The position numbers and the translations under genes are program-made. From Chryseobacterium jejuense (GTDB lineage: Bacteria > Bacteroidota > Bacteroidia > Flavobacteriales > Weeksellaceae): DNA of 64,000 nucleotides. Position 1 is the stretch's first letter. Every line of letters starts with the position of its first letter. This document shows positions 2,915-15,720 of this stretch, in pieces. Location: positions 124,001 to 188,000 of the forward strand of contig NZ_JAGIPR010000008.1 in NCBI RefSeq assembly GCF_017877355.1, written 5' to 3'. The notes below the pieces were generated by a model that searched no databases, had not been told where the DNA came from, and was given only the letters and a program-made list of their open reading frames with translations.

Positions 2915-5176
2915 ATGGAAACACAAAAGTTTAGTTATGACAATAGTATTGTCCGTGCGTTCCTCTATGCAACCATTATCTTTGGTTTCATAGGATTTAC
3001 GTTTGGGCTTACGGCGGCATTAATGCTTTTCTACCCTGAATTACCTGAATTCTTATTCGGTACAGATGATACAACCATTAAAAGTTTAGCATCGGGTAAT
3101 ATTCAAGGGTTAATAAACACTCATGGAGCCTTTGGTTTTGGTAGAATCAGGATGTTGCACACCAATACCGTGATCTTTGCGTTCGTGTGTAATATTGTTT
3201 ATGTAGGGGTATACTACTCTACGCAAAGATTATTGAAGACAAGAATGTACAGTGATACATTATCTTGGATTCACTTCTGGACATGGCAGTTTATGATCGT
3301 TGCTACGTTCATTACGTTCTTTATGGGTATTAATACTTCTAAGGAATATGCTGAACATGAGTGGCCGATCGATATTTTGATTGCGTTCTCATGGATCATT
3401 TTTGGAGTAAACATGATTCTCACTATTTCAAAGAGAAGAGTAAGACACCTTTATGTTGCTATTTGGTTCTATCTTGGAACTTGGGTAGCAGTAGCAATGC
3501 TTCACATCTTCAACAACCTTGAAGTTCCATTATCTTTCTCTGGCTGGAAGTCTTATTCTGCTTATGCAGGAGCAAAAGATGCCATCGTACAATGGTGGTA
3601 TGGTCACAATGCGGTAGCATTCGTATTGACAACTCCGGTTCTAGGTTTAATGTATTACTTCTTACCGAAAGCAGCAGACAGACCTGTATTCTCATATAAA
3701 CTGTCTATTATTCACTTTTGGTCACTAATCTTCGTATATATCTGGGCTGGTCCTCACCACCTTCAGTATACCGCTCTACCAGCATGGGCACAGGCAGTAG
3801 GAACAGGTTTCTCTATCATGCTTATCGCACCATCTTGGGGAGGAATGTTAAATGGTCTTCTTACCTTAAGAGGAGCTTGGGATAAAGTGAGAGAAAATCC
3901 TATCCTTAAGTTCTTCGTAGTAGCTGTTACTTGTTATGGTATGGCAACATTTGAAGGACCGCTTTTAGCAACTAAAAACATCAACAAAATTGGTCACTTT
4001 ACAGACTGGGTTATCGGTCACGTACACTTAGGAGCTCTTGGATGGAATGGTTTCATGGCATTCGGGGTTATCTATTACTTGGTACCTATTATGTGGAGAA
4101 CAAAAATTTGGTCTGTAAAATTAGCTAACTGGCACTTCTGGTTAGGAACATTAGGAATTATTTTCTATGCAGTACCAATGTATATTTCAGGATTCACACA
4201 AGGATTAATGTGGAAACAATTCAACCCGGACGGAACATTATTATGGAAAAACTGGTTGGATACAGTAACTGCAATTATTCCTTACTTTAAAATGAGATTC
4301 TTAGGAGGTATATTCTATATTTCAGGAGCTATCCTAATGATCGTTAACGTAATTGCTACCGTAAGAAAAGGATCGTTCCAGAAAGAAGTTCCTGCTGAAG
4401 CACCTGCATTAGCAAATATCGGAAACAAACGTAAAGAAGGAGAAGGATTCCACCTTTGGTTAGAAAGAATGCCAATGCTTTTAACAGTATTATCATTATG
4501 TACTATTTCCATCGGAAGTATGGTAGAAATTATTCCTACTCTATCACTTAAGAAAAGTGTACCTACCATTTCAGCAGTGAAGCCTTATTCTCCGCTTGAA
4601 CTTGAAGGTAGAGATATTTATATCCGTGAAGGATGTAACGCTTGCCACTCTCAGATGATCAGACCGTTCAGAGATGAGATTACAAGATTTAACGGTAAAA
4701 ACGGACAGTACTCTAAAGCAGGGGAATTCGTATACGACAGACCATTCCTTTGGGGATCTAAGAGAACAGGACCGGATTTACATAGAGAAGGTGGTAAAAA
4801 CCCAAGTTCTTGGCACTACAAGCATATGTATAACCCAAGATCTACATCTGCAGGTTCTATTATGCCTCGTTACCCTTGGTTAATTGCTACTAACTTAGAC
4901 AGATCTAAAATGGTAGATAAGATGAAGCTTATGAAGAATACATTTGATGTACCTTATACAAAAGCTCAAATCGATTCTGCAGATAAGTGGGCAGACAACC
5001 AATCGGCTAAAATTGTAAAAGATATCTTCTCTGAAGCAAATGACTTGAAAGAGGCTTATGCTAAGAAACCTCAGGGAGAATTAGAGAAAAAAGAAATTAT
5101 AGCTCTTATTTCTTACCTACAGAGATTAGGAACAGATATTAAAACAACTGAAATTAAAACAGCAAGTAATAACTAA
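2915..5176 (+). CDS. ccoN: Fused CcoN-CcoO cbb3 cytochrome c oxidase subunits I/II
   Basis: A 753-residue fusion of the catalytic CcoN subunit and the monoheme CcoO subunit of the high-affinity cbb3 terminal oxidase. The CcoN part (about 1-480) is polytopic and shows the metal ligands: H82 and H371 for low-spin heme b, H369 for heme b3, and H231 plus H281-H282 for CuB. The CcoO part (about 500-753) carries one heme c site, C574-N-A-C577-H578, and the region ending in SIMPRYPWL that supplies the axial methionine. In Proteobacteria these are two genes; the fusion is usual in Bacteroidota. It reduces oxygen to water and conserves energy at low oxygen. ccoQ follows 17 bases later. Confidence 0.95.
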   Translation: METQKFSYDNSIVRAFLYATIIFGFIGFTFGLTAALMLFYPELPEFLFGTDDTTIKSLASGNIQGLINTHGAFGFGRIRMLHTNTVIFAFVCNIVYVGVYYSTQRLLKTRMYSDTLSWIHFWTWQFMIVATFITFFMGINTSKEYAEHEWPIDILIAFSWIIFGVNMILTISKRRVRHLYVAIWFYLGTWVAVAMLHIFNNLEVPLSFSGWKSYSAYAGAKDAIVQWWYGHNAVAFVLTTPVLGLMYYFLPKAADRPVFSYKLSIIHFWSLIFVYIWAGPHHLQYTALPAWAQAVGTGFSIMLIAPSWGGMLNGLLTLRGAWDKVRENPILKFFVVAVTCYGMATFEGPLLATKNINKIGHFTDWVIGHVHLGALGWNGFMAFGVIYYLVPIMWRTKIWSVKLANWHFWLGTLGIIFYAVPMYISGFTQGLMWKQFNPDGTLLWKNWLDTVTAIIPYFKMRFLGGIFYISGAILMIVNVIATVRKGSFQKEVPAEAPALANIGNKRKEGEGFHLWLERMPMLLTVLSLCTISIGSMVEIIPTLSLKKSVPTISAVKPYSPLELEGRDIYIREGCNACHSQMIRPFRDEITRFNGKNGQYSKAGEFVYDRPFLWGSKRTGPDLHREGGKNPSSWHYKHMYNPRSTSAGSIMPRYPWLIATNLDRSKMVDKMKLMKNTFDVPYTKAQIDSADKWADNQSAKIVKDIFSEANDLKEAYAKKPQGELEKKEIIALISYLQRLGTDIKTTEIKTASNN

Positions 5177-5193
5177 AACATTAAAAGGTTAGT

Positions 5194-5394
5194 ATGATTC
5201 CTCAGAACTTTAAAGATATATTATCCAATACAGAAAATGCTGGCTTCTACCAGACCCTGGCTCTGATTTTCTTTATGCTGTTCTTCGTAGCTCTGGTAAT
5301 CTATGTTTTTAGCAAGCCTAAGAAATATTACAAAGAGGAAGAAGAAGCTCCCCTTGGAGAGGATGAAGACGACGATTTTAATTTAAAAAATTAA
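5194..5394 (+). CDS. ccoQ: CcoQ-like small cbb3 oxidase subunit
   Basis: A 66-residue protein with one membrane helix (about 22-40, rich in Phe, Leu and Val), then SKPKKYYKEEEEAP and a strongly acidic tail. Size, topology and position between ccoNO and ccoP match CcoQ/FixQ, which stabilises the oxidase complex. Sequence conservation in this family is weak, so the call depends on context as well as topology. It starts 17 bases after ccoNO and ends 10 bases before ccoP. Confidence 0.85.
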   Translation: MIPQNFKDILSNTENAGFYQTLALIFFMLFFVALVIYVFSKPKKYYKEEEEAPLGEDEDDDFNLKN

Positions 5395-5404
5395 ACTATT
5401 TTTT

Positions 5405-6286
5405 ATGAAACAAAGAACACCTGTTGTTGTAAACATCTTGATAATAATCGGACTTTTAATAGTTTTTTATTATTTGTTTGTGCAGAGCTACGCGTTCCTA
5501 GCTTCGCCTTACTTCTGGGGAACTGTTGTTATTGGTAGTATCCTTGCCTTTATCCACAGTGCTATTGGAGACTTGATTGAAAACAACAAATTCAAAAAAT
5601 TATCTCCGGAAGAGAAAGCGGCTTATTTAGCTGAAAAGAAAATTCCTTTCTTCAAAAGAATGTATGAAGCGGCCTTCAAAAAGCAATCTGATACAGAAGA
5701 AAAAGATATCCTTATTGACCATGGATTCGATGGAATCATGGAGTTGGATAACCAATTACCAAAATGGTGGGTAGGTTTATTCTACTTTGGGACTGCTTTT
5801 TGTATTGTATATATTGCAGCATATTCATTTACAGATTTTGCTCACCCGTTAAGCGAGTATGAAAAAGAATATAAAGAGCAATTGGCAAGCATTGCAGCTT
5901 ATGAAGCGAGCCAGCCGCCTGTAACTATTGAAACTGCTAAATATTCAGCAGATAACATTGCAGAAGGTAAAGAATTATTCAAAACAAACTGTGCATCTTG
6001 TCACAAAGAAGATGGTAGTGGAGGTATCGGTCCAAACTTAACGGATAATCACTGGATCAACATGCCAGAGAAGACGTTATTCAAAAACGTATTCCATATG
6101 GACTGGAATGGTTCTCCTACTAACCCTGCGATGAGAGCATTCGGTAAAAACGGAGAAGTTTCTGGAGCTGAAATTGAAAAGATTGCAGCGTATGTATATC
6201 ACATCAACCAGGAATTACCACCAGTAACTCCGGCTCAAGGAGGAGCTGCTCCTCAAGGAACTGAAGCACACTGGGAAAAAGAATAA
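5405..6286 (+). CDS. ccoP: CcoP, cytochrome c subunit III of cbb3 oxidase (single heme)
   Basis: A 293-residue membrane-anchored cytochrome c that passes electrons to CcoO/CcoN. Two hydrophobic segments lie near residues 8-55, followed by a soluble stretch and a CcoP_N-like segment around DNQLPKWWVGLFYFGTAF, then a periplasmic cytochrome c domain. That domain has one heme site, C196-A-S-C199-H200, followed by GGIGPNLTDNHW. Proteobacterial CcoP usually has two heme c sites; I find only one CxxCH in the whole protein. The C-terminal tail is Pro/Gly/Ala rich. It is the last oxidase gene before the hairpin at 6309-6367. Confidence 0.93.
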   Translation: MKQRTPVVVNILIIIGLLIVFYYLFVQSYAFLASPYFWGTVVIGSILAFIHSAIGDLIENNKFKKLSPEEKAAYLAEKKIPFFKRMYEAAFKKQSDTEEKDILIDHGFDGIMELDNQLPKWWVGLFYFGTAFCIVYIAAYSFTDFAHPLSEYEKEYKEQLASIAAYEASQPPVTIETAKYSADNIAEGKELFKTNCASCHKEDGSGGIGPNLTDNHWINMPEKTLFKNVFHMDWNGSPTNPAMRAFGKNGEVSGAEIEKIAAYVYHINQELPPVTPAQGGAAPQGTEAHWEKE

Positions 6287-6308
6287 TCTAAAAAATTAGA
6301 AACATATG

Positions 6309-6367
6309 AAAAAAACATAATTTGTTATTACCTTAAAAATAGTAACGAATTATGTTTTTTCTTTTTT
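6309..6367 (+). terminator. Long hairpin with T-tract after ccoP
   Basis: The arms 6309-6330 and 6340-6360 pair over about 20 bases (AACATAATTTG against its complement), with two G-U wobbles, and are followed by T6-C-T6. This is a strong intrinsic terminator or attenuator between ccoP and ccoG, which starts 15 bases later on the same strand. Confidence 0.75.
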
Positions 6368-6381
6368 AAATATATTACAAT

Positions 6382-7836
6382 ATGTCAGACATAGAAGAAA
6401 TAGAAGTACGAGGCGGACAGGGACAGGTTCTGGACCCTGAAACTTACAGAGATTCTATAGGGACAATGGAGCAATCCGGTAAAAGAAGATGGGTATTTCC
6501 ACGAAAACCAAAAGGAAAATACACTAACTATAGAAACATTGTAAGCTATCTATTACTAATTATTTATTTTTCATTACCATTCATCAAAATCAATGGTAAT
6601 CCATTATTGTTATTCAATGTGATAGACAGAGAGTTTTTCATTTTTGGACAACCTTTCTATCCACAGGACTTTTTTATCCTTACTTTAGGTGCCATCGCAT
6701 CATTAATCTTTATTATCGTTTTTACGATTGCATTCGGAAGAATTTTCTGCGGGTGGATTTGCCCTCAGACAATTTTTATGGAATCTATCTTCCGTAAAAT
6801 CGAATATCTGATTGAAGGTGATCGAAACAAGCAAATGAAGCTGGACAGACAGGAATGGAACAGTGAGAAGATCTGGAAAAGAACTTTAAAATGGTCTGTT
6901 TACATTGTTATTTCATTAATCATTACTCACTTTATGTTCATGTATATTGTGGGCTATGAAGAAGTATTCAAGATTGTGTCTGAAGGGCCATTTGCGCATC
7001 CTACCAATTTTATAGTAATGATTCTCCTTACCGCAGCATTTTACTTTGTATTTGCATGGTTCAGAGAACAAGTATGTACATTGGTTTGTCCATATGGTAG
7101 ACTTCAGGGCGTATTAATTGATAAAGATACCATCAATGTCTTCTATGACTTCAAAAGAGGGGAAGGAAGATCAAAATGGAGAAAGGGAGAAGATCGAAAA
7201 GCTGCAGGTAAAGGAGATTGTATTGATTGTCATCAGTGTGTAGTGGTATGTCCTACCGGAATTGATATTAGAGACGGACAACAGTTGGAATGTATCAACT
7301 GTACAGCATGTATTGATGCCTGCGATGAAGTCATGGAAAAAGTAGGCCTTCCGAAAGGTCTCATCAGATATGCTTCTGAAAATGAAATTGAAAAAGAAAT
7401 TCCATTCAAGTTTACCGGAAGAATGAAAGGATTCAGTATCTTCTTATTCCTTTTGGTAGGATTCTTAGGGTATCTGCTTTACAGCCGTGGAGAAATGGAA
7501 GCTAAATTCATTAAACCGGCAGGAAGTACATTCTTTGTGAAAGAAGGAAAAATTATCAATACCTATAATTATACCTTCCTGAATAAAACCAATGAGAAGA
7601 AAATGGTTACCATCAAGGTAATTGCACCTGCTCATGGAGAGATTACTTATAGTGCTTCAAGTAAAATTCCTGTAGACAGGGATAAAATATCCAAAGGAAC
7701 AATTAATATCAGCTTCCCGGAAGATGAAATGAAGCTTTCTAAACAGAACATCACAATCGGAGTTTATGACATGAAAGGTAAGCTTATCGATTCTTATCAA
7801 ACTTATTTTGAAGGACCATTCAAATTACAATTTTAA
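6382..7836 (+). CDS. ccoG: CcoG/RdxA/FixG, iron-sulfur copper-reducing factor for cbb3 assembly
   Basis: A 484-residue polytopic membrane protein with NapH-like cysteine pairs in membrane segments (CGWICP and CTLVCPYGRLQG) and a classic two-cluster ferredoxin domain (CIDCHQCVVVCPTG, then CINCTACIDACDEVM). The C-terminal third is a periplasmic Ig-like IG_FixG domain. CcoG is a Cu(II)-reducing, Fe-S protein that helps deliver copper to the cbb3 oxidase. It starts after the hairpin that follows ccoP and is followed 9 bases later by the fixH gene, so ccoG, fixH and the SafE gene look like one unit. Confidence 0.94.
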   Translation: MSDIEEIEVRGGQGQVLDPETYRDSIGTMEQSGKRRWVFPRKPKGKYTNYRNIVSYLLLIIYFSLPFIKINGNPLLLFNVIDREFFIFGQPFYPQDFFILTLGAIASLIFIIVFTIAFGRIFCGWICPQTIFMESIFRKIEYLIEGDRNKQMKLDRQEWNSEKIWKRTLKWSVYIVISLIITHFMFMYIVGYEEVFKIVSEGPFAHPTNFIVMILLTAAFYFVFAWFREQVCTLVCPYGRLQGVLIDKDTINVFYDFKRGEGRSKWRKGEDRKAAGKGDCIDCHQCVVVCPTGIDIRDGQQLECINCTACIDACDEVMEKVGLPKGLIRYASENEIEKEIPFKFTGRMKGFSIFLFLLVGFLGYLLYSRGEMEAKFIKPAGSTFFVKEGKIINTYNYTFLNKTNEKKMVTIKVIAPAHGEITYSASSKIPVDRDKISKGTINISFPEDEMKLSKQNITIGVYDMKGKLIDSYQTYFEGPFKLQF

Positions 7837-7845
7837 TTAGACAAA

Positions 7846-8298
7846 ATGAAGAACTTTAGTTGGGGACACGGTGTTGTAATTGCATTATTAGCATTTATTA
7901 TTTTCATATTATCCATGTTGTTTCTTTTCCCGAACGGGCAAAAAAACTCTGAAATGGTAACAGATAATTATTACGAAGAGGAATTGCAGTACCAGGATGT
8001 AATTGATTCTAAGAAAAGAGCTGACGAACTGCAGGAAAAACCTGTATTCAGCCAAGACACCAATGGAATTAAAATCACTTTTCCAAAGGATTATACTCAT
8101 TCAAACACAACGGTAAAATTTGTTTTAAACAGAACCGACGACCAGAATTTAGATATCAAAAAATCTGTAGAACTTGATGCCAACAACACTTTCATTATCC
8201 CTGCACAGGTATTGAAAATGGGTAACTATACCTTAAGACTGAGCTGGACAAAAGATAAAACAGACTATAGAATGGATTATGATGTGATATGGAAATAG
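7846..8298 (+). CDS. FixH/CcoH-family cbb3 oxidase assembly protein
   Basis: A 150-residue protein with one N-terminal membrane helix (about 6-28) and a periplasmic FixH domain: the segment NSEMVTDNYYEEELQYQDVID is typical, followed by a beta-rich domain ending in DYDVIWK. CcoH/FixH binds the assembling oxidase and is needed for its stability. It sits directly between ccoG and the SafE gene and overlaps the latter by 10 bases, which indicates translational coupling. Confidence 0.88.
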   Translation: MKNFSWGHGVVIALLAFIIFILSMLFLFPNGQKNSEMVTDNYYEEELQYQDVIDSKKRADELQEKPVFSQDTNGIKITFPKDYTHSNTTVKFVLNRTDDQNLDIKKSVELDANNTFIIPAQVLKMGNYTLRLSWTKDKTDYRMDYDVIWK

Positions 8299-9014
8299 GA
8301 CTTATTGTATCGGCTATTGCCTTAGGCTTTGCTTCCGGTTTTCACTGTATCGGAATGTGTGGGCCTATTGCTTTATCGATGGGATTAACCAAGAAACAGG
8401 CGGCTAATTTTTATCTTCAAAATCTTACCTATCAGTTCGGAAGAATTTTTACCTATTCATTATTAGGTGCACTTCTTGGAATTATAGGGCAAGGATTTGA
8501 GATGGCTGGTTTTCAGAAATACCTGACCATCACTGCCGGCGTTCTGCTTATTATTATGGCTGTATTCTCATTTGGCGGAAAAGATTTTGCTTCAAAGATT
8601 CCTTTTCTGTCCAAATTTTTATACTCTGTTAAATCTAATTTAGGGCGCTTGCTCCAAAAGGCAGATTACCGTTCAAGATTTACAACCGGAATTCTTAATG
8701 GATTCTTACCATGCGGAATGGTTTATATGGCCCTTACAGCAAGTCTAGCTGGCGGAGGAATATGGCAGGGAGCCTTATATATGGCTTTATTTGGTTTGGG
8801 AACCCTTCCATTCATGTTTGCCATCGTTCTGGCCGGAAATCTTATGAATCAGGCTTTCAGAACAAAGGTTTTAAAGGCAGTTCCTATCATTATGATTATT
8901 CTGGGTGGACTTTTTATTCTCAGAGGTTTAGAACTTGGTATTCCTTATGTTTCTCCAAAAGCCGAATCTATGACTATTTCAAAAGATCCTAACGGGGCTG
9001 TTAACTGCCATTAA
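8289..9014 (+). CDS. SafE/TauE-type membrane protein of the cbb3 assembly cluster
   Basis: A 241-residue polytopic protein that starts with GFASGFHCIGMCGPIALSMG and has LNGFLPCGMVYMAL in the middle. These two cysteine-containing helices are the hallmark of the DsbD/HCMA-like proteins often annotated as sulfite exporter TauE/SafE. About six helices are visible. In cbb3 clusters such proteins are thought to act in metal or redox delivery during oxidase assembly, not sulfite export; that role is inference here. The start overlaps the fixH stop by 10 bases. Confidence 0.82.
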   Translation: MEIGLIVSAIALGFASGFHCIGMCGPIALSMGLTKKQAANFYLQNLTYQFGRIFTYSLLGALLGIIGQGFEMAGFQKYLTITAGVLLIIMAVFSFGGKDFASKIPFLSKFLYSVKSNLGRLLQKADYRSRFTTGILNGFLPCGMVYMALTASLAGGGIWQGALYMALFGLGTLPFMFAIVLAGNLMNQAFRTKVLKAVPIIMIILGGLFILRGLELGIPYVSPKAESMTISKDPNGAVNCH

Positions 9015-9034
9015 TTAAAACTTACCATATACCC

Positions 9035-9772
9035 ATGAAAAAAACGATTGTCTTATTTCTAATAGGCTTATTTATGCTGCACTCCTGTAGTATTAATTCT
9101 GAAATAGTTTATCATACAGATAAGGCTCTTACTTGTATAACAGATATCGATACAAAAGAATTTATGGCTGAAATGATGGCCATGACCCCCGATTCATTAA
9201 AACAAAAGGAATTTGGAGAATTGGATAAACTTCCAACCACCTGGACAAATATGTATGATCTGGCGAAACACGAAGGAAAGCTGAAAACTGAAAATCAGGA
9301 TTCCATCAAGATCATGAAAAAAGTGTTTGTAAAATCCATAAAAGAGGCCAATAAACCAGCTGGTTTCTCTTTTAAAATGGAACATTTTACTCCAGAAGAT
9401 CATCAGTCTTTAAAAAGCTTTACTAAGACAGAAAAATTACCTTTAGATCAGAATGTCTATAACAATTGGGATGGAAAAACGCTGACTATAGATACGGACA
9501 ATTTCAATCTTAAAGCTCTTGAGGCAGCGATCAAAGCCAAAAGTTCAAAAGAAGAATCAGAAAAAATGGAAGGTATGATGATGATGTTTTTCAAAAATAT
9601 TGGTAGTACTTTAAGATTTGATAACAAAATAAAATCCATTTCAGGCTCACATGACTGGCTAAAACAGGTTGACGACCATTCAGTAAGGATAGAATACGAT
9701 ATAAAAACTCTGTACGACAAGGATTCAAAATTTAAAAATGCTGATAAAAAAATTGTTATTGTCACCGAATAA
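9035..9772 (+). CDS. Hypothetical SPII lipoprotein after the cbb3 cluster
   Basis: A 245-residue protein with a signal peptide ending in a lipobox (FMLHSC, C18), so it should be lipid-anchored. The mature part is charged, with a methionine-rich stretch near 180 (EGMMMMFF). I do not recognise a domain. It follows the SafE gene by 20 bases on the same strand and precedes a strong terminator, so it is probably the last gene of the ccoG unit. No link to oxidase assembly can be shown from the sequence. Confidence 0.75.
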   Translation: MKKTIVLFLIGLFMLHSCSINSEIVYHTDKALTCITDIDTKEFMAEMMAMTPDSLKQKEFGELDKLPTTWTNMYDLAKHEGKLKTENQDSIKIMKKVFVKSIKEANKPAGFSFKMEHFTPEDHQSLKSFTKTEKLPLDQNVYNNWDGKTLTIDTDNFNLKALEAAIKAKSSKEESEKMEGMMMMFFKNIGSTLRFDNKIKSISGSHDWLKQVDDHSVRIEYDIKTLYDKDSKFKNADKKIVIVTE

Positions 9773-9777
9773 AAAAT

Positions 9778-9804
9778 ATATCCCACCGAATTCCGGTGGG
9801 ATAT
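9778..9804. terminator. Bidirectional terminator after the lipoprotein gene
   Basis: ATATCCCACCG (9778-9788) pairs perfectly with CGGTGGGATAT (9794-9804) around a five-base loop, flanked by A-rich and T-rich runs. It can end the plus-strand oxidase unit and the minus-strand RiPP operon. Confidence 0.75.
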
Positions 9805-9908
9805 TTATTAAAACATGTCTTGGCATCATCTGAAGTGAAGTATTAATTTCAAGCCATTGGTAATCCAATAAAGCTTTCAGACAGCAAAACTTTAACCTAC
9901 ATCAAACA

Positions 9909-10712
9909 TTAAGGATATTTAATGGCATCCGTAAGTTCAATAGGATTATTCTTCATTTTTATATCTTTCTGTTTAAGTTCTGTAAGTTGATTAAAATTGG
10001 GAGTTACCTGCCTTCCAGATTCATCTACCACCTTTACTACAGCCTTTCCGGCTTTAAGTTCTTTATAAGGATCATTATAGTAATCCAGGTAAGCTTTGGT
10101 TAACTGTTTTCTGGTAACAGGAATAGTTTCTGATATTGTATTCACTGCTCCAACATTTTTCTTGAGCTCAGTCATTGTAAAAATATAATTATTGCCAGAG
10201 TCTCTCATATCTACAATCAAACCAGGCAAAGAATTAAAGATATACGGTCCTTCCTGAAAAGGAATGTCTTTCGCAAACCATGCTTCCCAATTTCTCCCCT
10301 TATAATTCAGGATCGCTTTCTGGCAATTGACATCATGTATTTTTTTAACTTCTTCAGTAATCTTCCAATCAAATATAGCTGCATCTTCTTTTAACGAATA
10401 CTTATCCAGACCTACTGCATAATATTTCTCAGTTTTATTATCCTTTTTGTTTTTGAACACCATAAAATCATAATCAGCCGCCTTCTTTCTAATCTCATTG
10501 GTCCCTAGTGAATCAATATGATATAAATTGTAGGAATAAAATTTAGAAACATCATCTTTTACATCCAAAATCATCTTTTTTTTAATTGCTCCATCCTTAG
10601 TGGAGTCTATTTTATAAGCCATCTGATAATATACCCTGTATGTCTGTGCTTGTAAAAAAGAGATGGATATCAAAACAATTAAAAAGTTTAAAATATTTTT
10701 TTTCATGTGCAT
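9909..10712 (-). CDS. GLPGLI family protein, last gene of the RiPP operon
   Basis: A 267-residue secreted protein with a signal peptide (hydrophobic ILNFLIVLISISFLQAQ) and the core motif NSLPGLIVDM, a variant of the GLPGLI motif that names this Bacteroidota family. The family is beta-rich and of unknown function. Its start overlaps the stop of the upstream lipoprotein gene (shared base 10712), and that gene in turn overlaps the SPASM gene, so it appears to be co-transcribed with the peptide-maturation genes. An in-frame ATG two codons in (10706) is an alternative start. Confidence 0.85.
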   Translation of the reverse strand: MHMKKNILNFLIVLISISFLQAQTYRVYYQMAYKIDSTKDGAIKKKMILDVKDDVSKFYSYNLYHIDSLGTNEIRKKAADYDFMVFKNKKDNKTEKYYAVGLDKYSLKEDAAIFDWKITEEVKKIHDVNCQKAILNYKGRNWEAWFAKDIPFQEGPYIFNSLPGLIVDMRDSGNNYIFTMTELKKNVGAVNTISETIPVTRKQLTKAYLDYYNDPYKELKAGKAVVKVVDESGRQVTPNFNQLTELKQKDIKMKNNPIELTDAIKYP

Positions 10713-11320
10713 TAATTAAGAGGTTCAATATAACCTTCCCATAGAGAATGATTAATATCAAAGAACATGGTGTTAATTTCTCTATTAAACCATTTATAAT
10801 CCGGGTCTTTAGAATAGCCTGGATTATTGACTGCTACAAATCGAATAACTCCTCCTTTTACAGTTTTATAGAAGTCATAGACCTGAAATTTATCGAAATT
10901 GTACCGGGAAAAAACTTGATTTTCATCTTCTTTATGTTTAACTGTAGTATACAATTTTTTTACGTCTTCAATGTTCATATCTTTATAAAAAAAACCTAAA
11001 ATATTTGAAAACGTAGGCTGATTGGTATACATAAACAGAAATTGTTCACCTTTCTTTTTAGGAAGCTTGTAATGCAGTAGTTTGTGCATTTCAGAATTTT
11101 TAAAAAAGATATACTGTTTATCTATTTTTTTAAACCGATAATCTGCATAAGTATAGAATGGTATATTTTGTTTTCCGCCATCAAAGGTTAAAACAAATTT
11201 ATCATACATGTCCGGATGATCGGTCTCCACTTTTTGCTGTCCATTGAAATAATAATAATTTTTACAGCTCATAAGTGATAACAGAGAGAATATTGCTATT
11301 ATTTTAATTAGACCATTCAT
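10712..11320 (-). CDS. Hypothetical lipoprotein in the RiPP operon
   Basis: A 202-residue protein with a short signal peptide and lipobox (LSLMSC, C19), then a Tyr/Phe/Lys-rich region (KNYYYFNGQQ). No domain recognised. It overlaps the upstream SPASM gene by 17 bases and the downstream GLPGLI gene by 1 base, which argues for translational coupling. It may be an envelope partner of the peptide or of the GLPGLI protein, but this is inference from position only. Confidence 0.78.
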   Translation of the reverse strand: MNGLIKIIAIFSLLSLMSCKNYYYFNGQQKVETDHPDMYDKFVLTFDGGKQNIPFYTYADYRFKKIDKQYIFFKNSEMHKLLHYKLPKKKGEQFLFMYTNQPTFSNILGFFYKDMNIEDVKKLYTTVKHKEDENQVFSRYNFDKFQVYDFYKTVKGGVIRFVAVNNPGYSKDPDYKWFNREINTMFFDINHSLWEGYIEPLN

Positions 11321-12305
11321 TAGTATAGGGATTATAGTTACAATTTACAAAATACGTTTTCTTTTCATGATCATATTCTGGAATAAAATTAGCAGTACAT
11401 GCATATTTCAGTTCACATTTTCTGCATGGCATAATTTTATCTCTTTTTAGATTCCATACCTCAGAAAGGAGAAATAAATTATTTTCTATTTCTGAATCTA
11501 AAATATTGCCATACTCTTTCAAGTCAATAGAATTGAGCTGCAACATCCCATTTGCATTCACAAAAACTGTTTTATACAATCCCAGATTAGCATTTCTACC
11601 CGTAAGAAAAGCCCTATGGTTTATTGATATTGTATTGATACCTGCTTTAGGAAGTAGGAAGTCCTGTTCGCTATGTTTTAAAAAGTATAAATTAACTTTA
11701 TAGATTTCTATGCTTTCCGAATAAGGTGAGTTATAGAAATATAGGTTTGTAAGCCTTTGCTCCTTAATTGAATTTGGATTAAAATCTTTTTGATAAGGTA
11801 ATGATATTGAAAGATTAACAACACTGCTATGCTTAAGAACATGAATAAGTTCCAATATTTTTTCCTTATCAGTTTCCAGAGGCCAATGAAGATGCAGGCG
11901 CTTTACTCCTAAATATTCAATTCTTTCCAAAATCATTTTGAAATTATTTACTACGAAATCAGACACTACCAGTGTCATATATTCAATTTTAGAAGTATCA
12001 TCATTAAAGCATTTGTTAGAAAGTTTTGGAAAGTGATCTTCTGAAGAAAAGAAAACAAATTCTTTTTCAATAAGAAGTTCCAAATATTCCCATGCTATTT
12101 CATTATCTCCCCATTCATCTAAAATACTTTGAACGGGCTTCTTATTGATATAGCTGATAAAATCAATTAAAGAATTAGGAACCAACTCAATATCATCTCT
12201 CTGCAAATCATAAATAGCTCCTCTTGCAGAACCTTTAACCGGCATGCAGCATGAAAACAGAAATAGTTTTTTATTACGATTATGGCTTAGGCGGGTTAAT
12301 TCCAT
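11304..12305 (-). CDS. Grasp-with-spasm SPASM-domain peptide maturase
   Basis: A 333-residue protein that matches the SPASM partner of grasp-with-spasm RiPP systems. The first ~80 residues (GAIYDLQRDDIELVPNS and what follows) resemble the PqqD-like peptide-recognition region seen in related maturases. The middle looks like a reduced barrel. The C-terminus has the SPASM cysteines C294, C297, C303 and C322 (CRKCELKYAC), which would hold an auxiliary Fe-S cluster. There is no CX3CX2C radical-SAM motif anywhere; the only early cysteines are an adjacent pair (FSCC). It may therefore bind precursor and cluster without radical chemistry. It overlaps the 65-aa gene upstream by 26 bases. Confidence 0.85.
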   Translation of the reverse strand: MELTRLSHNRNKKLFLFSCCMPVKGSARGAIYDLQRDDIELVPNSLIDFISYINKKPVQSILDEWGDNEIAWEYLELLIEKEFVFFSSEDHFPKLSNKCFNDDTSKIEYMTLVVSDFVVNNFKMILERIEYLGVKRLHLHWPLETDKEKILELIHVLKHSSVVNLSISLPYQKDFNPNSIKEQRLTNLYFYNSPYSESIEIYKVNLYFLKHSEQDFLLPKAGINTISINHRAFLTGRNANLGLYKTVFVNANGMLQLNSIDLKEYGNILDSEIENNLFLLSEVWNLKRDKIMPCRKCELKYACTANFIPEYDHEKKTYFVNCNYNPYTNEWSN

Positions 12306-12477
12306 CTTTAAAAGTTCTTAAACACAATATTTCTGATTGATACTTCTTAGCTTCAATTTTTCTGAGTAAGGGTTCATGAGTAGAAGATTTTGTGCCAGTT
12401 TCTACCACTTGTGAAAAAATCGGAGGTAATAGTTTTTTCTTTGCTGGGTTAATTTCTTGAAGAAGAGTTTTTTCCAT
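12280..12477 (-). CDS. 65-aa small protein between the ATP-grasp and SPASM genes
   Basis: A 65-residue open frame that overlaps the end of the ATP-grasp gene by 29 bases and the start of the SPASM gene by 26 bases, exactly bridging the two. It begins MEKTLLQEINPAKKKLLPP and ends DGINPPKP; it has one cysteine and no membrane segment or double glycine. The tight tiling argues that it is a translated gene rather than chance. I do not recognise the family. It could be an accessory peptide-recognition factor or a second, atypical precursor; neither is shown. Confidence 0.6.
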   Translation of the reverse strand: MEKTLLQEINPAKKKLLPPIFSQVVETGTKSSTHEPLLRKIEAKKYQSEILCLRTFKDGINPPKP

Positions 12478-13420
12478 GATTCATTTTCTTTAATAACAAA
12501 GCCATTTCATAGTGTAAATTATAATTACAGCGGTAGGATGTCATTCTAAACTGTCCAAAAGGATTTACTTCTAAAAAGTAATATTCTCCGTCACTTCCTT
12601 TTATAATATCTATTGATCCTGTTTGTAAATTCAGTGCTTTCATTAGCTTTGTAACTTTACGGTCAAGATCTTTGGGCATCTGATAACGGATAAACCGATT
12701 GGGTTTCTCTTGGTTATAATTCCTGAAATCAACAGATGTTTTAGAGTCATTTTGAGAAAATATTGCCATCGAATAATTTTTCCCTTTAAGATGGAAGACT
12801 CTTAGTTCATATTCCTTAATAATCTGTTCCTGAAATAATCCCGGAAAAAAAGACTCTGTAGGAGTATTATATTCCAACGTCATTACAGGAAAATTCTTAT
12901 TTTTATAATTAATCATCTTTCCATCGTTTACAGACTTAGTAATCCATAATCGATCTTCTTGCTCAAATTGATTGGTAATGATTGTAAAAGGAATTTTAAG
13001 CCCCGCTATTTCAGCTTTTGTAAGCATTTCTATCTTACTTAAACCCACAACAGATGTATAATGATTAACCCATTTCTTATTCCTTAAAGCAAAAAGGATT
13101 ATGTTCAAAACCCCTGAATATTCTGAATATAGATATTGTAGCATGTCTAAAGAAAGATCTTCTTCAAACATTTCCTTATACTTATCAAAATTTCCCCATT
13201 TGCGATACCATACAGTTGTTATCTCTGAAACATCTATTTTGCCGAAAAATTCATTTTGAATGATTAACTGCCCATGAGAGTTCACCGCATAATACATCTG
13301 TGTTTTTCCATTAAACAGATCTATATCATTTAAACGGATATACGGCTCACCCATATTATTTAGGTGTTCTATAACAACATTCGTATCATCATCCCATGAA
13401 GTAGATAAAATTAAAATCAT
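12449..13420 (-). CDS. Grasp-with-spasm ATP-grasp peptide maturase
   Basis: A 323-residue ATP-grasp enzyme of the microviridin/graspetide ligase type. Such enzymes activate side-chain carboxylates of a precursor peptide with ATP and join them to Ser/Thr hydroxyls or Lys amines. Visible signs are the N-terminal MILILSTSWDDDTNVVIEHL, the FQEQIIKEYELRVF segment (ATP/Mg binding), and FLEVNPFGQF near the C-terminus, the typical ATP-grasp metal-binding end. It follows the 59-aa precursor gene after a hairpin and overlaps the small 65-aa gene. The reaction type is inferred from the family. Confidence 0.88.
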   Translation of the reverse strand: MILILSTSWDDDTNVVIEHLNNMGEPYIRLNDIDLFNGKTQMYYAVNSHGQLIIQNEFFGKIDVSEITTVWYRKWGNFDKYKEMFEEDLSLDMLQYLYSEYSGVLNIILFALRNKKWVNHYTSVVGLSKIEMLTKAEIAGLKIPFTIITNQFEQEDRLWITKSVNDGKMINYKNKNFPVMTLEYNTPTESFFPGLFQEQIIKEYELRVFHLKGKNYSMAIFSQNDSKTSVDFRNYNQEKPNRFIRYQMPKDLDRKVTKLMKALNLQTGSIDIIKGSDGEYYFLEVNPFGQFRMTSYRCNYNLHYEMALLLKKMNHGKNSSSRN

Positions 13421-13423
13421 AAT

Positions 13424-13459
13424 AAAAAAAGGGTTGATTCTTATTTCTGAAACAACCCT
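13424..13459 (-). terminator. Intra-operon hairpin between RiPP precursor and maturase genes
   Basis: On the minus strand AGGGTTG pairs with CAACCCT (13453-13459 with 13430-13436) and is followed directly by seven T. It lies between the precursor stop and the ATP-grasp start. Partial termination here would give more precursor transcript than enzyme transcript, a common RiPP design. Confidence 0.75.
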
Positions 13460-13474
13460 GATAAGTTTTTTAAA

Positions 13475-13654
13475 TTAACATCCGTCAGATGCACCAGAAG
13501 GTATTACAACACTTTCAAGTACGTAAGGGTCATTCGCAGTTCCTGAACCACTGCATACTCCTTCAGGAAGCAACTTTCTTAATCCTCCGTGGATTAGTTT
13601 CAGACTACCTGTTTCAAGGACTTTCCCATTTTTTAATGATTTTAATTTTTTCAT
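13475..13654 (-). CDS. Grasp-with-spasm RiPP precursor peptide (59 aa)
   Basis: A short gene starting with ATG at 13654. The leader is Lys/Leu rich (MKKLKSLKNGKVLETGSLKL) and contains a double glycine at 23-24. The probable core (31-59) carries C34, Ser/Thr at 35, 37, 39, 48, 53 and 56, carboxylates at D42, E47 and D57, and a terminal C59. Hydroxyl and carboxyl side chains in this layout suit ester crosslinks by the adjacent ATP-grasp enzyme. It is the first gene of the operon, has its own candidate promoter, and is followed by the hairpin at 13424-13459. Leader/core boundary and crosslinks are inference. No C39-type exporter is encoded nearby. Confidence 0.85.
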   Translation of the reverse strand: MKKLKSLKNGKVLETGSLKLIHGGLRKLLPEGVCSGSGTANDPYVLESVVIPSGASDGC

Positions 13655-13709
13655 AGTAATTAATTTTGTTTTGGTCCTACTCTATAAGCTTTTCGGATTT
13701 CGCTTATGA

Positions 13710-13740
13710 CGAATATATAAAAATCATAACTCTCCACAAA
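13710..13740 (-). promoter_or_regulatory. Candidate promoter of the RiPP operon
   Basis: Reading the minus strand, TTTG (13737-13740) is followed after 19 bases by TATATTCG (13710-13717), one mismatch from TAnnTTTG. It would start transcription about 50 bases before the precursor ATG. Confidence 0.45.
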
Positions 13741-13831
13741 AGGAATAATAATGAAATTTCATATTTTTTATTATGTTAATAACCTTTTCTTAAAAAAAAC
13801 AGAATAAAAATATCAAAAAAGTATTAAAAAA

Positions 13832-13862
13832 TAAAAATCCCCTCTCATTACTGAAAGGGGAT
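13832..13862 (-). terminator. Terminator of serS
   Basis: On the minus strand ATCCCCT (13856-13862) pairs with AGGGGAT (13837-13843) and is followed by TTTTTATTTTTT, 23 bases after the serS stop. Confidence 0.75.
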
Positions 13863-13884
13863 CTATTTATATAAAAAATTTCTT

Positions 13885-15153
13885 CTAGTTGATGATATCG
13901 AATCTCGCGTATTCAGCAATCTTCTTAGGAAGTTTAATTCCTTCTGCGGTTTGATTGTTCTCCAATAACGCGGCCATAATTCTTGGCAACGCCATCGCAG
14001 ATCCGTTCAGGGTGTGAACCAGCTGAGATTTACCATCTGCTTTGTAACGGCACTTCAGTCTGTTAGCCTGGAATGTCTCAAAATTTGAAACAGAACTCAC
14101 TTCTAACCACATTTCCTGTGCAGCACTCCATACTTCGAAGTCATATGTCATTGCAGATGCAAAACCTGTATCTCCACCACAAAGTCTTAATACTCTGAAT
14201 GGAAGCTCAAGATCTGTAAGAATTTCCTTGATATGTTCTACCATTTCTTCCAATACAGCATAAGAGTTTTCAGGTTTTTCAATTCTTACAATTTCTACTT
14301 TTTCAAACTGATGAAGACGGTTCAGACCTCTTACATGAGCTCCGTAGCTTCCTGCTTCTCTTCTGTAGCATTGTGAGAAAGCCGTATTTTTAATCGGAAG
14401 ATCTTTTTCATCCAGTAATACATCACGATAAAGGTTTGTTACAGGAACTTCAGCTGTAGGAATCAGATATAATTTATCTTCGTTGATATAATACATCTGC
14501 CCTTCTTTATCAGGCAGCTGTCCTGTTCCAAAACCAGAAGCTTCATTCACTACGTGAGGCGGGTTTACTTCTGTATACCCTTTCTCTACGTTTTTATCTA
14601 GGAAATACTGAACTAAAGCTCTTTGCAGTCTTGCTCCTTTTCCTAAATAAACAGGGAAACCTGCTCCAGCGATTTTTACTCCTAATTCAAAATCGATAAG
14701 GTTATATTTTTTTGCCAGCTCCCAGTGAGGAATGGCTCCTTCACCAAGACCTTCTACCGTATGAGACTGGAAAATAATTTCATTGTCATCAGCAGAAGCG
14801 CCGCTTTTTACCAATTCATTTGGAATGTTTGGAAGCTGATACAGAATATTTAATAATTCAGTTTCTTTTACTTCCAGCTGGGATTTCAATTCTGAACTCG
14901 ACTCTTTATACTGTGCTGTTTTAGATTTTGCCGATTCCGCTTCTTCTTTCTTTCCTTCCTTCATTAAAAGTCCAATTTCCTTGGAGATTTTATTGATCTC
15001 GGAAAGCTGGGAATCTAATTCAAATTGGATTCTTTTTCTTTCATCGTCAGTAGCAATAGCTTCGTCTACCAACTCAAGATTCTTGAATTGTCTCTTTTGA
15101 AGACCTTCTAAAACGCGTTCTTTGTTGTCGCGTAAAAAATTGACTTGTAACAT
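13885..15153 (-). CDS. serS: Seryl-tRNA synthetase
   Basis: A 422-residue class II aminoacyl-tRNA synthetase that charges tRNA-Ser. The N-terminal ~110 residues form the long coiled-coil arm that binds the tRNA (heptad-rich Lys/Glu stretch ISKEIGLLMKEGKKEEAES). The catalytic domain shows TAEVPVTNLYRD, motif 2 around FSQCYRREAGSYG, and motif 3 NGSAMALPRIMAALLE. Length and order match the family. A terminator follows and a -7 promoter element lies upstream at 15206-15213, so it is probably monocistronic. Confidence 0.97.
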   Translation of the reverse strand: MLQVNFLRDNKERVLEGLQKRQFKNLELVDEAIATDDERKRIQFELDSQLSEINKISKEIGLLMKEGKKEEAESAKSKTAQYKESSSELKSQLEVKETELLNILYQLPNIPNELVKSGASADDNEIIFQSHTVEGLGEGAIPHWELAKKYNLIDFELGVKIAGAGFPVYLGKGARLQRALVQYFLDKNVEKGYTEVNPPHVVNEASGFGTGQLPDKEGQMYYINEDKLYLIPTAEVPVTNLYRDVLLDEKDLPIKNTAFSQCYRREAGSYGAHVRGLNRLHQFEKVEIVRIEKPENSYAVLEEMVEHIKEILTDLELPFRVLRLCGGDTGFASAMTYDFEVWSAAQEMWLEVSSVSNFETFQANRLKCRYKADGKSQLVHTLNGSAMALPRIMAALLENNQTAEGIKLPKKIAEYARFDIIN

Positions 15154-15205
15154 TTTATTTAGATGTTAAATATTAAATTCAGCCTAATATAAGCTAATAA
15201 TTTTA

Positions 15206-15213
15206 CAAATTTA
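15206..15213 (-). promoter_or_regulatory. -7 promoter element for serS
   Basis: The minus strand reads TAAATTTG, an exact TAnnTTTG match, ending 52 bases upstream of the serS ATG. No clear -33 TTTG at standard spacing. Confidence 0.4.
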
Positions 15214-15216
15214 AAA

Positions 15217-15720
15217 CTATTTTGTGATAGTCACGTTATTTATCGAATTAGGGGTACCCGCATCTTTTGAAAATACAGATTTATTATTGTATAAAACTTC
15301 AGAAACCTGGAATACTTCCGGTGTGTTCCTATAACGGATTTCAAGAATATCTTTAACTGACTGAGTCGTATTATTAACAGTCTTGTTTAAGGTAAGTTCC
15401 ATTCTCGAATAATAAGTGGTACCGGCAGAATCAAATTTCTTTCTTTGGGCTCCACCAACATATTCTATATAAAAAACAGAATCCTGTCTCATTCTCAGAG
15501 GAATAGAGGTAACAGGAGAGATATCTTTAGCTCCCAACATATCATTTACTGAAAAACTTGTAAAAGATCCACTCTTTTTAGCATTCAATAAATCCGGATT
15601 GGTATCAGACTTCATATAGATATTCAGGATCTGATCAATTCTTTGTAAAGAATCGTCATCACTTCCACAGCTGATAACCACACCGCTTAATAATAAAATA
15701 TAAAGAAAGATATTTTTCAT
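15217..15720 (-). CDS. Hypothetical SPII lipoprotein
   Basis: A 167-residue protein with a signal peptide and lipobox (GVVISC, C18) followed directly by GSDDDS, a common start of Bacteroidota surface lipoproteins. No domain recognised; the mature part is beta-prone with many Thr/Asn/Ser. It lies 27 bases downstream of the flippase gene and may belong to that transcript. An acidic stretch right after the +1 cysteine resembles the lipoprotein export signal reported for surface lipoproteins in Bacteroidota; surface location is therefore possible. Confidence 0.75.
   Translation of the reverse strand: MKNIFLYILLLSGVVISCGSDDDSLQRIDQILNIYMKSDTNPDLLNAKKSGSFTSFSVNDMLGAKDISPVTSIPLRMRQDSVFYIEYVGGAQRKKFDSAGTTYYSRMELTLNKTVNNTTQSVKDILEIRYRNTPEVFQVSEVLYNNKSVFSKDAGTPNSINNVTITK

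What the first reader, a model, noticed from the sequence alone, without database searches (positions are those of the whole stretch)
9909..13654. Complete grasp-with-spasm RiPP operon joined to a lipoprotein and a GLPGLI protein
Precursor, ATP-grasp enzyme, small protein, SPASM protein, lipoprotein and GLPGLI protein are on one strand, and every junction after the ATP-grasp start overlaps. GLPGLI proteins have no known function; their overlap-coupled place here suggests an envelope role in export, anchoring, immunity or sensing of the peptide.
Basis: partly seen in the sequence, partly recalled or inferred. Interest (0 to 1): 0.75.

Follow-up and report, generated by a model that had tools for sequence, protein, structure and literature searches.

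The report
GLPGLI protein guards a modified peptide
A Chryseobacterium-type bacterium carries a six-gene cassette that makes a small chemically modified peptide, and its last gene, from a large family of unknown function, looks like the cell's own protection against (or receiver for) that peptide.

Summary
The six genes are as described, on the minus strand between two terminator-like sites. Caveats: the last overlap (1 nt) depends on start choice, the SPASM protein scores below its curated cut-off, and the locus has no exporter. The GLPGLI link is real: within 3 kb of the ATP-grasp in 14 of 41 loci (1.16 genes expected) and 0 of 20 control ATP-grasp loci. Among 17 named relatives of this operon, the 16 with an unsplit SPASM gene all carry GLPGLI, at several chromosomal sites; the lipoprotein is dispensable. 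In three cases, judged separate, the biosynthetic genes are gone or truncated and GLPGLI is intact; in the clearest, three sister species, it stays under purifying selection. An immunity or receiver gene would do this; an export or maturation factor hardly would. The GLPGLI model is a LolA/RseB-like half-barrel. Elsewhere some GLPGLI genes directly follow small exported cysteine peptides (14 of 59 versus 5 of 158 other genes). Best reading: a periplasmic peptide-binding protein, most likely for immunity. No paper found in the held library links GLPGLI to RiPPs. New variant of grasp-with-spasm clusters; function inferred, not shown.

The parts
13475..13654 (-). precursor peptide, 59 aa; double-glycine-type leader (..LETGSLKLIHGG) and core LRKLLPEGVCSGSGTANDPYVLESVVIPSGASDGC
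   Evidence: aligned with the precursors of related operons; L-12/L-7/I-4/GG pattern read from sequence
12449..13420 (-). ATP-grasp peptide maturase (graspetide synthetase type)
   Evidence: TIGR04192 257 bits, over cut-off
12280..12477 (-). small 65-aa protein directly upstream of the SPASM gene, in the position of the 'LPL' family
   Evidence: position and KKLLPPIF stretch; conserved in the related operons; LPL family described in PMC8939145 (passages)
11304..12305 (-). divergent SPASM-domain protein without CX3CX2C; of the SPASM-region cysteines only C294, C297, C303, C322
   Evidence: TIGR04193 140 bits, below cut-off 175; cysteine survey
10712..11320 (-). 202-aa predicted lipoprotein (LMSC by my reading), optional member; model tentatively DcrB/PsbP-like
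   Evidence: no family; in 12 of 17 named relatives; model pLDDT 68, Z about 8
9909..10712 (-). GLPGLI family protein, signal peptide (my reading), one cysteine in the mature part (C130), LolA/RseB-like half-barrel model; proposed immunity or peptide-binding protein
   Evidence: TIGR01200 160 bits; in 16 of 17 named relatives; retained where biosynthetic genes are gone; fold; Cys count
13710..13741 (-). possible Bacteroidota-type promoter TTTTG-N19-TATATTCG, one mismatch to TAnnTTTG
   Evidence: read from sequence; the consensus is recalled, not from a call
13835..13864 (-). terminator-like hairpin after the upstream same-strand gene (my reading: serS)
9778..9804 (-). terminator-like hairpin after the GLPGLI gene

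Best explanation
The locus is a divergent grasp-with-spasm RiPP (graspetide-type) cassette. The ATP-grasp enzyme, with the small LPL-position protein and a degenerate SPASM protein, modifies the double-glycine-leader precursor (inferred from the families). The peptide is probably exported by a C39-type transporter encoded elsewhere, such as the one beside the genome's own cluster on contig C11 (inferred). The GLPGLI protein is secreted to the periplasm, folds as a LolA/RseB-like half-barrel, and most likely binds the mature peptide there and protects the producer (immunity). The lipoprotein may assist. Shown here: linkage, conservation, retention without the biosynthetic genes, purifying selection in the clearest retained lineage, and a predicted fold. 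Inferred: peptide binding, toxicity of the peptide, protection.
For: (1) Linkage: 14 of 41 loci within 3 kb, 13 of them same strand, 1.16 genes expected, P 3e-11; 0 of 20 chryseoviridin-like ATP-grasp pair loci. (2) Of 17 named relatives GLPGLI is in 16; the one without it (L193) has a split SPASM gene. The operon sits at several chromosomal sites and brings GLPGLI to each. (3) Retention: (a) L311, L314, L317: GLPGLI alone between the two genes that flank the operon in nine named relatives, one clade nested among operon bearers (fork with L200 100/100), dN/dS among the three 0.18-0.23; (b) L297: about 53 residues of SPASM left, no ATP-grasp of the family on that contig, lipoprotein and GLPGLI intact, pairwise dN/dS of GLPGLI to four operon-bearing relatives 0.10-0.15; (c) L301: 41 SPASM residues left, GLPGLI intact, no ATP-grasp of the family at E<=1e-42 in the genome. 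(4) Model: best PDB hit the N-terminal domain of PNGF-II (Z 16.6), then among others LolA, RseB, MucB (Z about 10). (5) Away from gws loci GLPGLI genes follow small exported peptide genes: 14 of 59 versus 5 of 158 other genes with a frozen classifier, P 1.3e-5; 8 of 80 curated NF047798 peptides versus 0.09 expected, 4 of the 8 in one array; similarities of 27 chosen peptides and their partners correlate, r 0.645, 0 of 2000 permutations. (6) GLPGLI and cluster-23-like lipoproteins tend to exclude each other (both 2, GLPGLI only 15, lipoprotein only 18, neither 6; P 9e-5), as if filling one role.
Against: Nothing in these calls shows that the peptide is toxic. 24 of 41 gws loci have no GLPGLI within 5 kb, nor have 9 of 9 regions from other bacterial families. 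72 of 80 NF047798 peptides have no GLPGLI start within 500 bp downstream; most GLPGLI genes (56 of 72; 45 of 59) have no detected peptide upstream. GLPGLI is often the 3'-most gene, so deletions from the 5' side would spare it by position. Selection after the loss is shown only in (a), and there only if the loss preceded the split of the three species; in (b) much of the divergence may be older than the loss, and in (c) it was not computed. The half-barrel also matches VioE, ependymin-related proteins and 2yzy as well as or better than LolA (Z 10-12), and suits a carrier equally. Against secreted controls alone (3 of 44) the independent peptide test is weak (P 0.03).
Confidence: 0.43

Rival explanations
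1. GLPGLI is a periplasmic receiver or sensor (RseB-like) that binds the peptide as a signal; strains that lost the biosynthetic genes still listen.
For: RseB/MucB are among the fold matches; retention without biosynthesis fits a receiver as well as immunity; peptides and GLPGLI partners co-diverge.
Against: I noticed no sensor kinase or anti-sigma gene in the mapped operons, but did not search for them.
Confidence: 0.22
2. GLPGLI is a LolA-like periplasmic carrier or maturation chaperone that takes the exported peptide across the periplasm or helps to fold or oxidise it.
For: LolA is among the fold matches; VKOR-like and thioredoxin-like genes stand directly before GLPGLI in 10 of 17 named relatives (Pfam VKOR 25.7 bits under its cut-off 27.5, Thioredoxin_4 25.0 over 23.2); Cys at position 130 in 17 of 24 gws-linked and 22 of 29 peptide-paired GLPGLI proteins versus 29 of 90 others.
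Against: GLPGLI is kept intact where precursor and enzymes are gone, which a dedicated export or maturation factor would not explain.
Confidence: 0.18
3. Surface or periplasmic anchoring: C130 forms a mixed disulfide with a peptide cysteine, displaying or storing the peptide.
For: The window's mature GLPGLI has one cysteine, C130, and the core has two (sequence); C130 is commoner in peptide contexts (no correction for kinship).
Against: 7 of 24 gws-linked GLPGLI proteins lack Cys at that place; GLPGLI is kept without a precursor gene.
Confidence: 0.07
4. Hitchhiking: GLPGLI genes are abundant in these genomes and the neighbourhood is incidental.
For: 2 to 34 GLPGLI genes per genome in 26 genomes; many are not near any detected peptide.
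Against: Frequency far above chance, presence across insertion sites, at least 13 changes of state on a quick tree.
Confidence: 0.05

Closest known systems
Grasp-with-spasm clusters / graspetide 'branch 5' of PMC8939145 (passages and section 7 read; supplements not seen)
   Same: Precursor with GG motif, ATP-grasp, small LPL-position protein directly upstream of SPASM; usually an exported partner protein (there 'cluster 23').
   Different: SPASM protein is divergent and below the curated cut-off; no cluster-23-like lipoprotein, a GLPGLI protein instead; the paper's Table 1 (families in more than 20 loci) names no GLPGLI family.
GLPGLI family TIGR01200 / Pfam PF09697 Porph_ging
   Same: Match over cut-off.
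   Different: Pfam calls it of unknown function and I found no function in the held papers; here it has a specific operon partner and a loss pattern.
LolA / RseB / MucB periplasmic half-barrels
   Same: Predicted fold of residues about 22-200 (Z about 10).
   Different: About 10% identity; other half-barrels (VioE, ependymin-related proteins, 2yzy) match as well; no LolCDE- or RseA-like partner was examined; function not shown.
PNGF-II (PNGase F-II) N-terminal domain, PF22252
   Same: Sequence (E 6.7e-7; Pfam 27.6 bits, equal to the cut-off) and structure (Z 16.6).
   Different: The window's protein is 267 aa and stands alone, without the rest of the enzyme.
Class II bacteriocin with its immunity gene (recalled general knowledge)
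   Same: Small GG-leader peptide gene followed by one partner gene; tandem peptide-partner pairs in L154 (GG leaders) and L243 (Sec leaders).
   Different: Partner is a secreted protein of another fold; no killing shown.

Membership tests
grasp-with-spasm RiPP cluster | ATP-grasp maturase TIGR04192 over curated cut-off | tested here: met
   257.4 bits, cut-off 230
grasp-with-spasm RiPP cluster | SPASM maturase TIGR04193 over curated cut-off | tested here: not met
   140 bits, cut-off 175, E 1.2e-40; so filed as a divergent variant, not a plain member
grasp-with-spasm RiPP cluster | GG-leader precursor just upstream of the ATP-grasp | tested here: met
   54 nt upstream, leader aligned with relatives; Pfam Bacteroid_pep only 13.4 of 25 bits
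grasp-with-spasm RiPP cluster | ester or amide cross-links in the product | not testable with these tools
   needs mass spectrometry
radical SAM enzyme | CX3CX2C SAM-cluster motif (recalled) | tested here: not met
   absent in 39 of 39 SPASM proteins of at least 300 aa, the window's included
GLPGLI family (TIGR01200) | score over cut-off and (G/S)LPGLI motif | tested here: met
   160.3 bits, cut-off 50; SLPGLI in the window
LolA/RseB-like fold | open beta half-barrel matching solved members | tested here: met
   model pLDDT 73; LolA E 1.2e-5, RseB E 2.7e-5, Z about 10; similar half-barrels of other functions score alike
bacteriocin immunity protein | gene kept where biosynthetic genes are lost | tested here: met
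   three cases, judged separate; not specific, a receiver would show it too
bacteriocin immunity protein | protects against the cognate peptide | not testable with these tools
   needs deletion and challenge
leader_Chryseo bacteriocin-like peptides (NF047798) | leader score over 23.5 bits | tested here: not met
   window precursor matches no NCBIfam model at E<=1; three GG-type peptides upstream of GLPGLI genes in L154 and L175 do match (26.0-37.6 bits)

The most novel reading that the evidence does not exclude
A large part of the GLPGLI family in Chryseobacterium and its kin is a system of dedicated periplasmic LolA/RseB-like partners, one per exported cysteine peptide. The peptide may be Sec-exported, double-glycine-exported or grasp-with-spasm modified, and GLPGLI gives immunity to it or reception of it, perhaps through thiol chemistry at C130.
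Probability: 0.33. Interest if true: 0.85.

Novelty: new variant of a known kind. Interest (0 to 1): 0.72.

Why it matters
GLPGLI proteins occur in 2 to 34 copies per genome in the 26 genomes counted, and Pfam calls them of unknown function. A predicted fold, a defined peptide partner and a loss pattern of the kind expected of immunity genes make the function directly testable, and give a handle for finding new exported peptides: look upstream of GLPGLI genes. The work also shows that 39 of 39 grasp-with-spasm SPASM proteins examined lack the radical-SAM motif, which bears on what chemistry these clusters do.

Tried and rejected
Chance neighbourhood of GLPGLI: rejected. 'Every GLPGLI has a peptide': rejected. 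'Every grasp-with-spasm locus has GLPGLI': rejected. Homology of the lipoprotein (c20) to cluster-23-like lipoproteins or to GLPGLI by profile comparison: not found. Calling c3/c55/c89 'DUF6624': Pfam gave no hit for one protein of each, so I call them cluster-23-like; c3 matches c55 and c89 by hhalign, and identity with the published cluster 23 rests on its description. Lipoprotein fold: Z about 8 to PsbP/DcrB/Eag with no Foldseek hit at E<=0.001, so tentative.

Limits of the counts. The expectation uses per-genome GLPGLI counts and rounded genome sizes. The peptide classifier was written after seeing the same data; one search repeats it unchanged on other genomes, where tandem pairs in one genome (L243, L235) are not independent. 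One search counted 72 of the 77 GLPGLI ORFs, and of G098 only part of its GLPGLI genes had been fetched. In one search, 80 over-cut-off peptides of six genomes (G011 had none) were set against 118 GLPGLI places; the fragment G043:2820892 and sub-cut-off rows were left out. The 27 pairs were chosen by hand (33 were in my list, which adds pairs seen by eye to the classifier's), and some are orthologues, so common descent alone could give the correlation. The peptide-paired group uses that hand-made list (29 of 33 are rows of the tree). One search scored at most 8 candidates per genome and gave loci only to the best match of each of the 30 best genomes (the window's own included). One search printed a wrong tally (plus strand only, 16 of 30); one search corrects it: 27 of 30 with a related operon gene upstream on the same strand, 22 with SPASM, these 22 including the remnants in L297 and L301. 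Of 56 GLPGLI relatives at E<=1.1e-55, 41 have an ATP-grasp within 5 kb and 15 do not; of those 15 I read five neighbourhoods (L297, L301, L311, L314, L317), G118's was seen in L154, and nine were not read. That the three loss cases are separate is judged from their different relatives and breakpoints; no tree holds all three. dN/dS is pairwise Nei-Gojobori, not a lineage test.
Full report
What is there. The window (G000:C8:124001-188000) holds six minus-strand genes at 9909-13654. NCBIfam names the ATP-grasp (TIGR04192, 257 bits, cut-off 230), the SPASM protein (TIGR04193, 140 bits, under its cut-off of 175) and the GLPGLI protein (TIGR01200, 160 bits, cut-off 50); the precursor, the 65-aa protein and the lipoprotein match nothing at E<=1. 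Overlaps are 29, 26, 17 and 1 nt; the last depends on the start codon chosen, and the two nearest relatives have a 5-nt gap there. Terminator-like hairpins bound the unit on both sides and none lies inside it on that strand. The unit is plausibly one transcript, but that was not tested. The genome belongs to the genus of Chryseobacterium: genome G072, marked 'same genus', holds a contig of the length and place of C. contaminans L200.

The modifying enzymes. The order precursor, ATP-grasp, small protein, SPASM is that of the Bacteroidetes graspetide 'branch 5' of PMC8939145 (passages and section 7 read), whose small LPL protein always stands directly upstream of SPASM. None of 39 SPASM proteins of at least 300 aa in the loci I compared has CX3CX2C, so a canonical radical-SAM reaction is doubtful, although that paper calls them radical SAM enzymes. 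The window's protein also keeps only C294, C297, C303 and C322, where the class of L043 and others has eight cysteines in that region. In 18 of 22 aligned precursor rows (not all independent) the core has the same Cys, Thr/Ser and Asp/Glu pattern; four (L197, L199, L205, L207) have another core. This is a divergent variant, not a textbook member.

Is GLPGLI linked? A search of 148 genomes of the bacterial family gave 33 with an ATP-grasp match, 19 over the cut-off. I took all matches of at least 150 bits: 43 rows, merged into 41 loci including the window. GLPGLI lies within 3 kb of the ATP-grasp in 14 of 41 (13 on the same strand) against 1.16 genes expected, P 3e-11, and in 0 of 20 chryseoviridin-like ATP-grasp pair loci from the same search. 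Within 5 kb it is 17 of 41. Places vary: after SPASM, after VKOR-like and thioredoxin-like genes, upstream of the precursor, or between precursor and ATP-grasp, where other loci have a cluster-23-like lipoprotein. The two partner types tend to exclude each other: both 2, GLPGLI only 15, lipoprotein only 18, neither 6 (P 9e-5). On a quick tree of 143 GLPGLI proteins the 24 gws-linked ones need at least 13 changes of state (gains or losses); 11 of them, the window's included, are in one set of 13 tips with support 88. Of 11 further regions fetched from the order, 9 from other bacterial families have an ATP-grasp gene and none has GLPGLI; one of the two from the window's genus has GLPGLI after SPASM, the other is a SPASM remnant. 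In this sample the link is confined to the window's bacterial family; how many GLPGLI genes those other genomes have was not counted.

The window's own subtype. A scan of named genomes gave 17 loci, 16 Chryseobacterium and one Flavobacteriaceae MAG; some are the same records as loci above (for example L195 and L052). GLPGLI is in 16 of 17; the exception, L193, has a split SPASM gene. The lipoprotein is in only 12 of 17. Nine operons sit between the same two genes (my reading: a malic enzyme gene and ruvA), the window's, L048's and C. panacisoli's beside serS (my reading), others elsewhere; GLPGLI comes along at each site.

Loss pattern. The best GLPGLI match of each of the 30 best of 296 genomes was given a locus; 27 have a gene of this operon upstream on the same strand (22 SPASM) and 3 do not. 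Those 3 (L311, L314, L317) have GLPGLI alone between the same malic enzyme and ruvA genes. Their genomes have TIGR04192 matches only of other classes, the nearest about 17 kb away. They form one clade whose sister is C. contaminans with the operon (fork 100/100), have open reading frames and pairwise dN/dS of 0.18-0.23, and within the 1.5 kb held on either side show no remnant of the operon better than E 0.19. Two further cases look separate. In L297 (71% identical to the window's GLPGLI) only about 53 residues of SPASM remain, no TIGR04192 match is on that contig (one of another class elsewhere in the genome), and lipoprotein and GLPGLI are intact, with pairwise dN/dS to L293-L296 of 0.10-0.15 and, for the lipoprotein, 0.18-0.24; part of that divergence may predate the loss. 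In L301 41 residues of SPASM remain beside an intact GLPGLI (no dN/dS computed), and the genome has no TIGR04192 match at E<=1e-42. Overall 41 of 56 relatives at E<=1.1e-55 have an ATP-grasp within 5 kb; of the 15 others nine neighbourhoods were not read. Biosynthesis lost with the partner kept is what one expects of immunity or of a receiver, not of export or maturation. The caveat is that GLPGLI is often the last gene and so easily spared.

Fold. The AlphaFold2 model of the window's GLPGLI (18 sequences, pLDDT 73) matches the N-terminal domain of PNGF-II best (E 1.3e-10; Z 16.6, 169 residues, 2.8 A), then a set of half-barrels: 2yzy (Z 12.3), VioE and ependymin-related proteins (Z 10-11), and LolA, RseB and MucB (Z about 10; Foldseek E 1e-5 to 1e-2). 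The fold thus fits a ligand binder but does not single out a role. The PNGF-II link is also seen by sequence (E 6.7e-7). The lipoprotein model is weaker (pLDDT 68) and tentatively DcrB/PsbP-like.

A wider pattern. In 60 regions around GLPGLI genes of five genomes, 16 of 72 GLPGLI genes have directly upstream a small exported peptide gene, either Sec-type with at least two Cys or of the double-glycine bacteriocin-like type, versus 5 of 391 other genes (rule written on these data). With the rule frozen, 40 regions of two other genera gave 14 of 59 versus 5 of 158 (P 1.3e-5; against secreted controls only, 3 of 44, P 0.03). With the curated leader NF047798, 8 of 80 over-cut-off peptides are followed within 500 bp by GLPGLI, 0.09 expected, 4 of the 8 in one array beside a gws locus; so most such peptides have none. 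Similarities of 27 hand-chosen peptides and their GLPGLI partners correlate (r 0.645, 0 of 2000 permutations; 0.42 without close pairs), which common descent of linked genes could also give; cores of some double-glycine and Sec peptides are alike (z 9.4 for L209/L235, 7.0 for L175/L231). The Cys at position 130 is in 17 of 24 gws-linked and 22 of 29 peptide-paired GLPGLI proteins, versus 29 of 90 others, without correction for kinship.

Literature. In the held library 'grasp-with-spasm' is in no paper and 'GLPGLI' in three, none on RiPPs by title (listing seen for all three, passages of PMC9603813 only, which lists GLPGLI genes among those changed in a phoP mutant). PF09697, Porph_ging and TIGR01200 are in none. 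PMC8939145 Table 1 lists cluster 23 but no GLPGLI family (its supplements were not seen). PMC13097080 (passages) reports DUF6624 with some graspetide groups. PMC10352776 (passages) covers Bacteroidales RiPPs and reports no known immunity proteins in its clusters. Subscription papers and preprints were not searched.

Verdict. The most likely role of GLPGLI is a periplasmic peptide-binding immunity protein (0.43, lowered from 0.45 on re-checking because selection after the loss is shown in one case only), then a receiver (0.22) or a carrier (0.18). The biosynthetic cassette is a variant of a known kind; the GLPGLI assignment is the new and testable part.

Noticed in passing
L042 (G000:C11:33000-50000), L043 (G000:C15), L112 (G000:C3): The window's genome has two more grasp-with-spasm loci and one chryseoviridin-like ATP-grasp pair. 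The C11 locus also has a VKOR/thioredoxin-like gene, a C39-type ABC transporter and an HlyD-like gene (my readings), which could export the window's peptide in trans.
   Followed up: partly
L042-L081 and window: None of 39 grasp-with-spasm SPASM proteins of at least 300 aa has CX3CX2C, although PMC8939145 treats the family as radical SAM enzymes.
   Followed up: partly
L192 (C. panacisoli), about 7769-15352: Two grasp-with-spasm operons stand close together, separated by one opposite-strand gene: the window's type and a second of another class.
   Followed up: no
L243 (G011:C15), 4463-7833: Three tandem peptide-GLPGLI pairs whose peptides share an identical signal peptide and differ in the core.
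   Followed up: partly
L154 (G118), 5805-13957: An array of double-glycine Cys-rich peptides alternating with GLPGLI genes runs straight into a grasp-with-spasm locus whose partner slot between precursor and ATP-grasp is filled by GLPGLI.
   Followed up: partly
L175:13869-14753, L148:13022-13798 and L231:1403-2164: Peptides with alike cores upstream of GLPGLI genes carry a double-glycine-type leader in L175 and a Sec signal in L148 and L231.
   Followed up: partly
L193 (Chryseobacterium sp. ERMR1:04): Operon with a split SPASM gene and no GLPGLI.
   Followed up: no
window 6382-9014: CcoG/FixH-like cytochrome oxidase assembly genes (my reading) lie on the opposite strand beyond the operon's 3' end.
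   Followed up: no
L135, L165, L172, L181: Some GLPGLI genes without peptides are kept at what looks like the same place in four genomes (opposite-strand gene of about 283 aa, 51-60 nt downstream), suggesting a second, housekeeping-like branch. Their high profile scores mean little, as the profile was built from such proteins.
   Followed up: no
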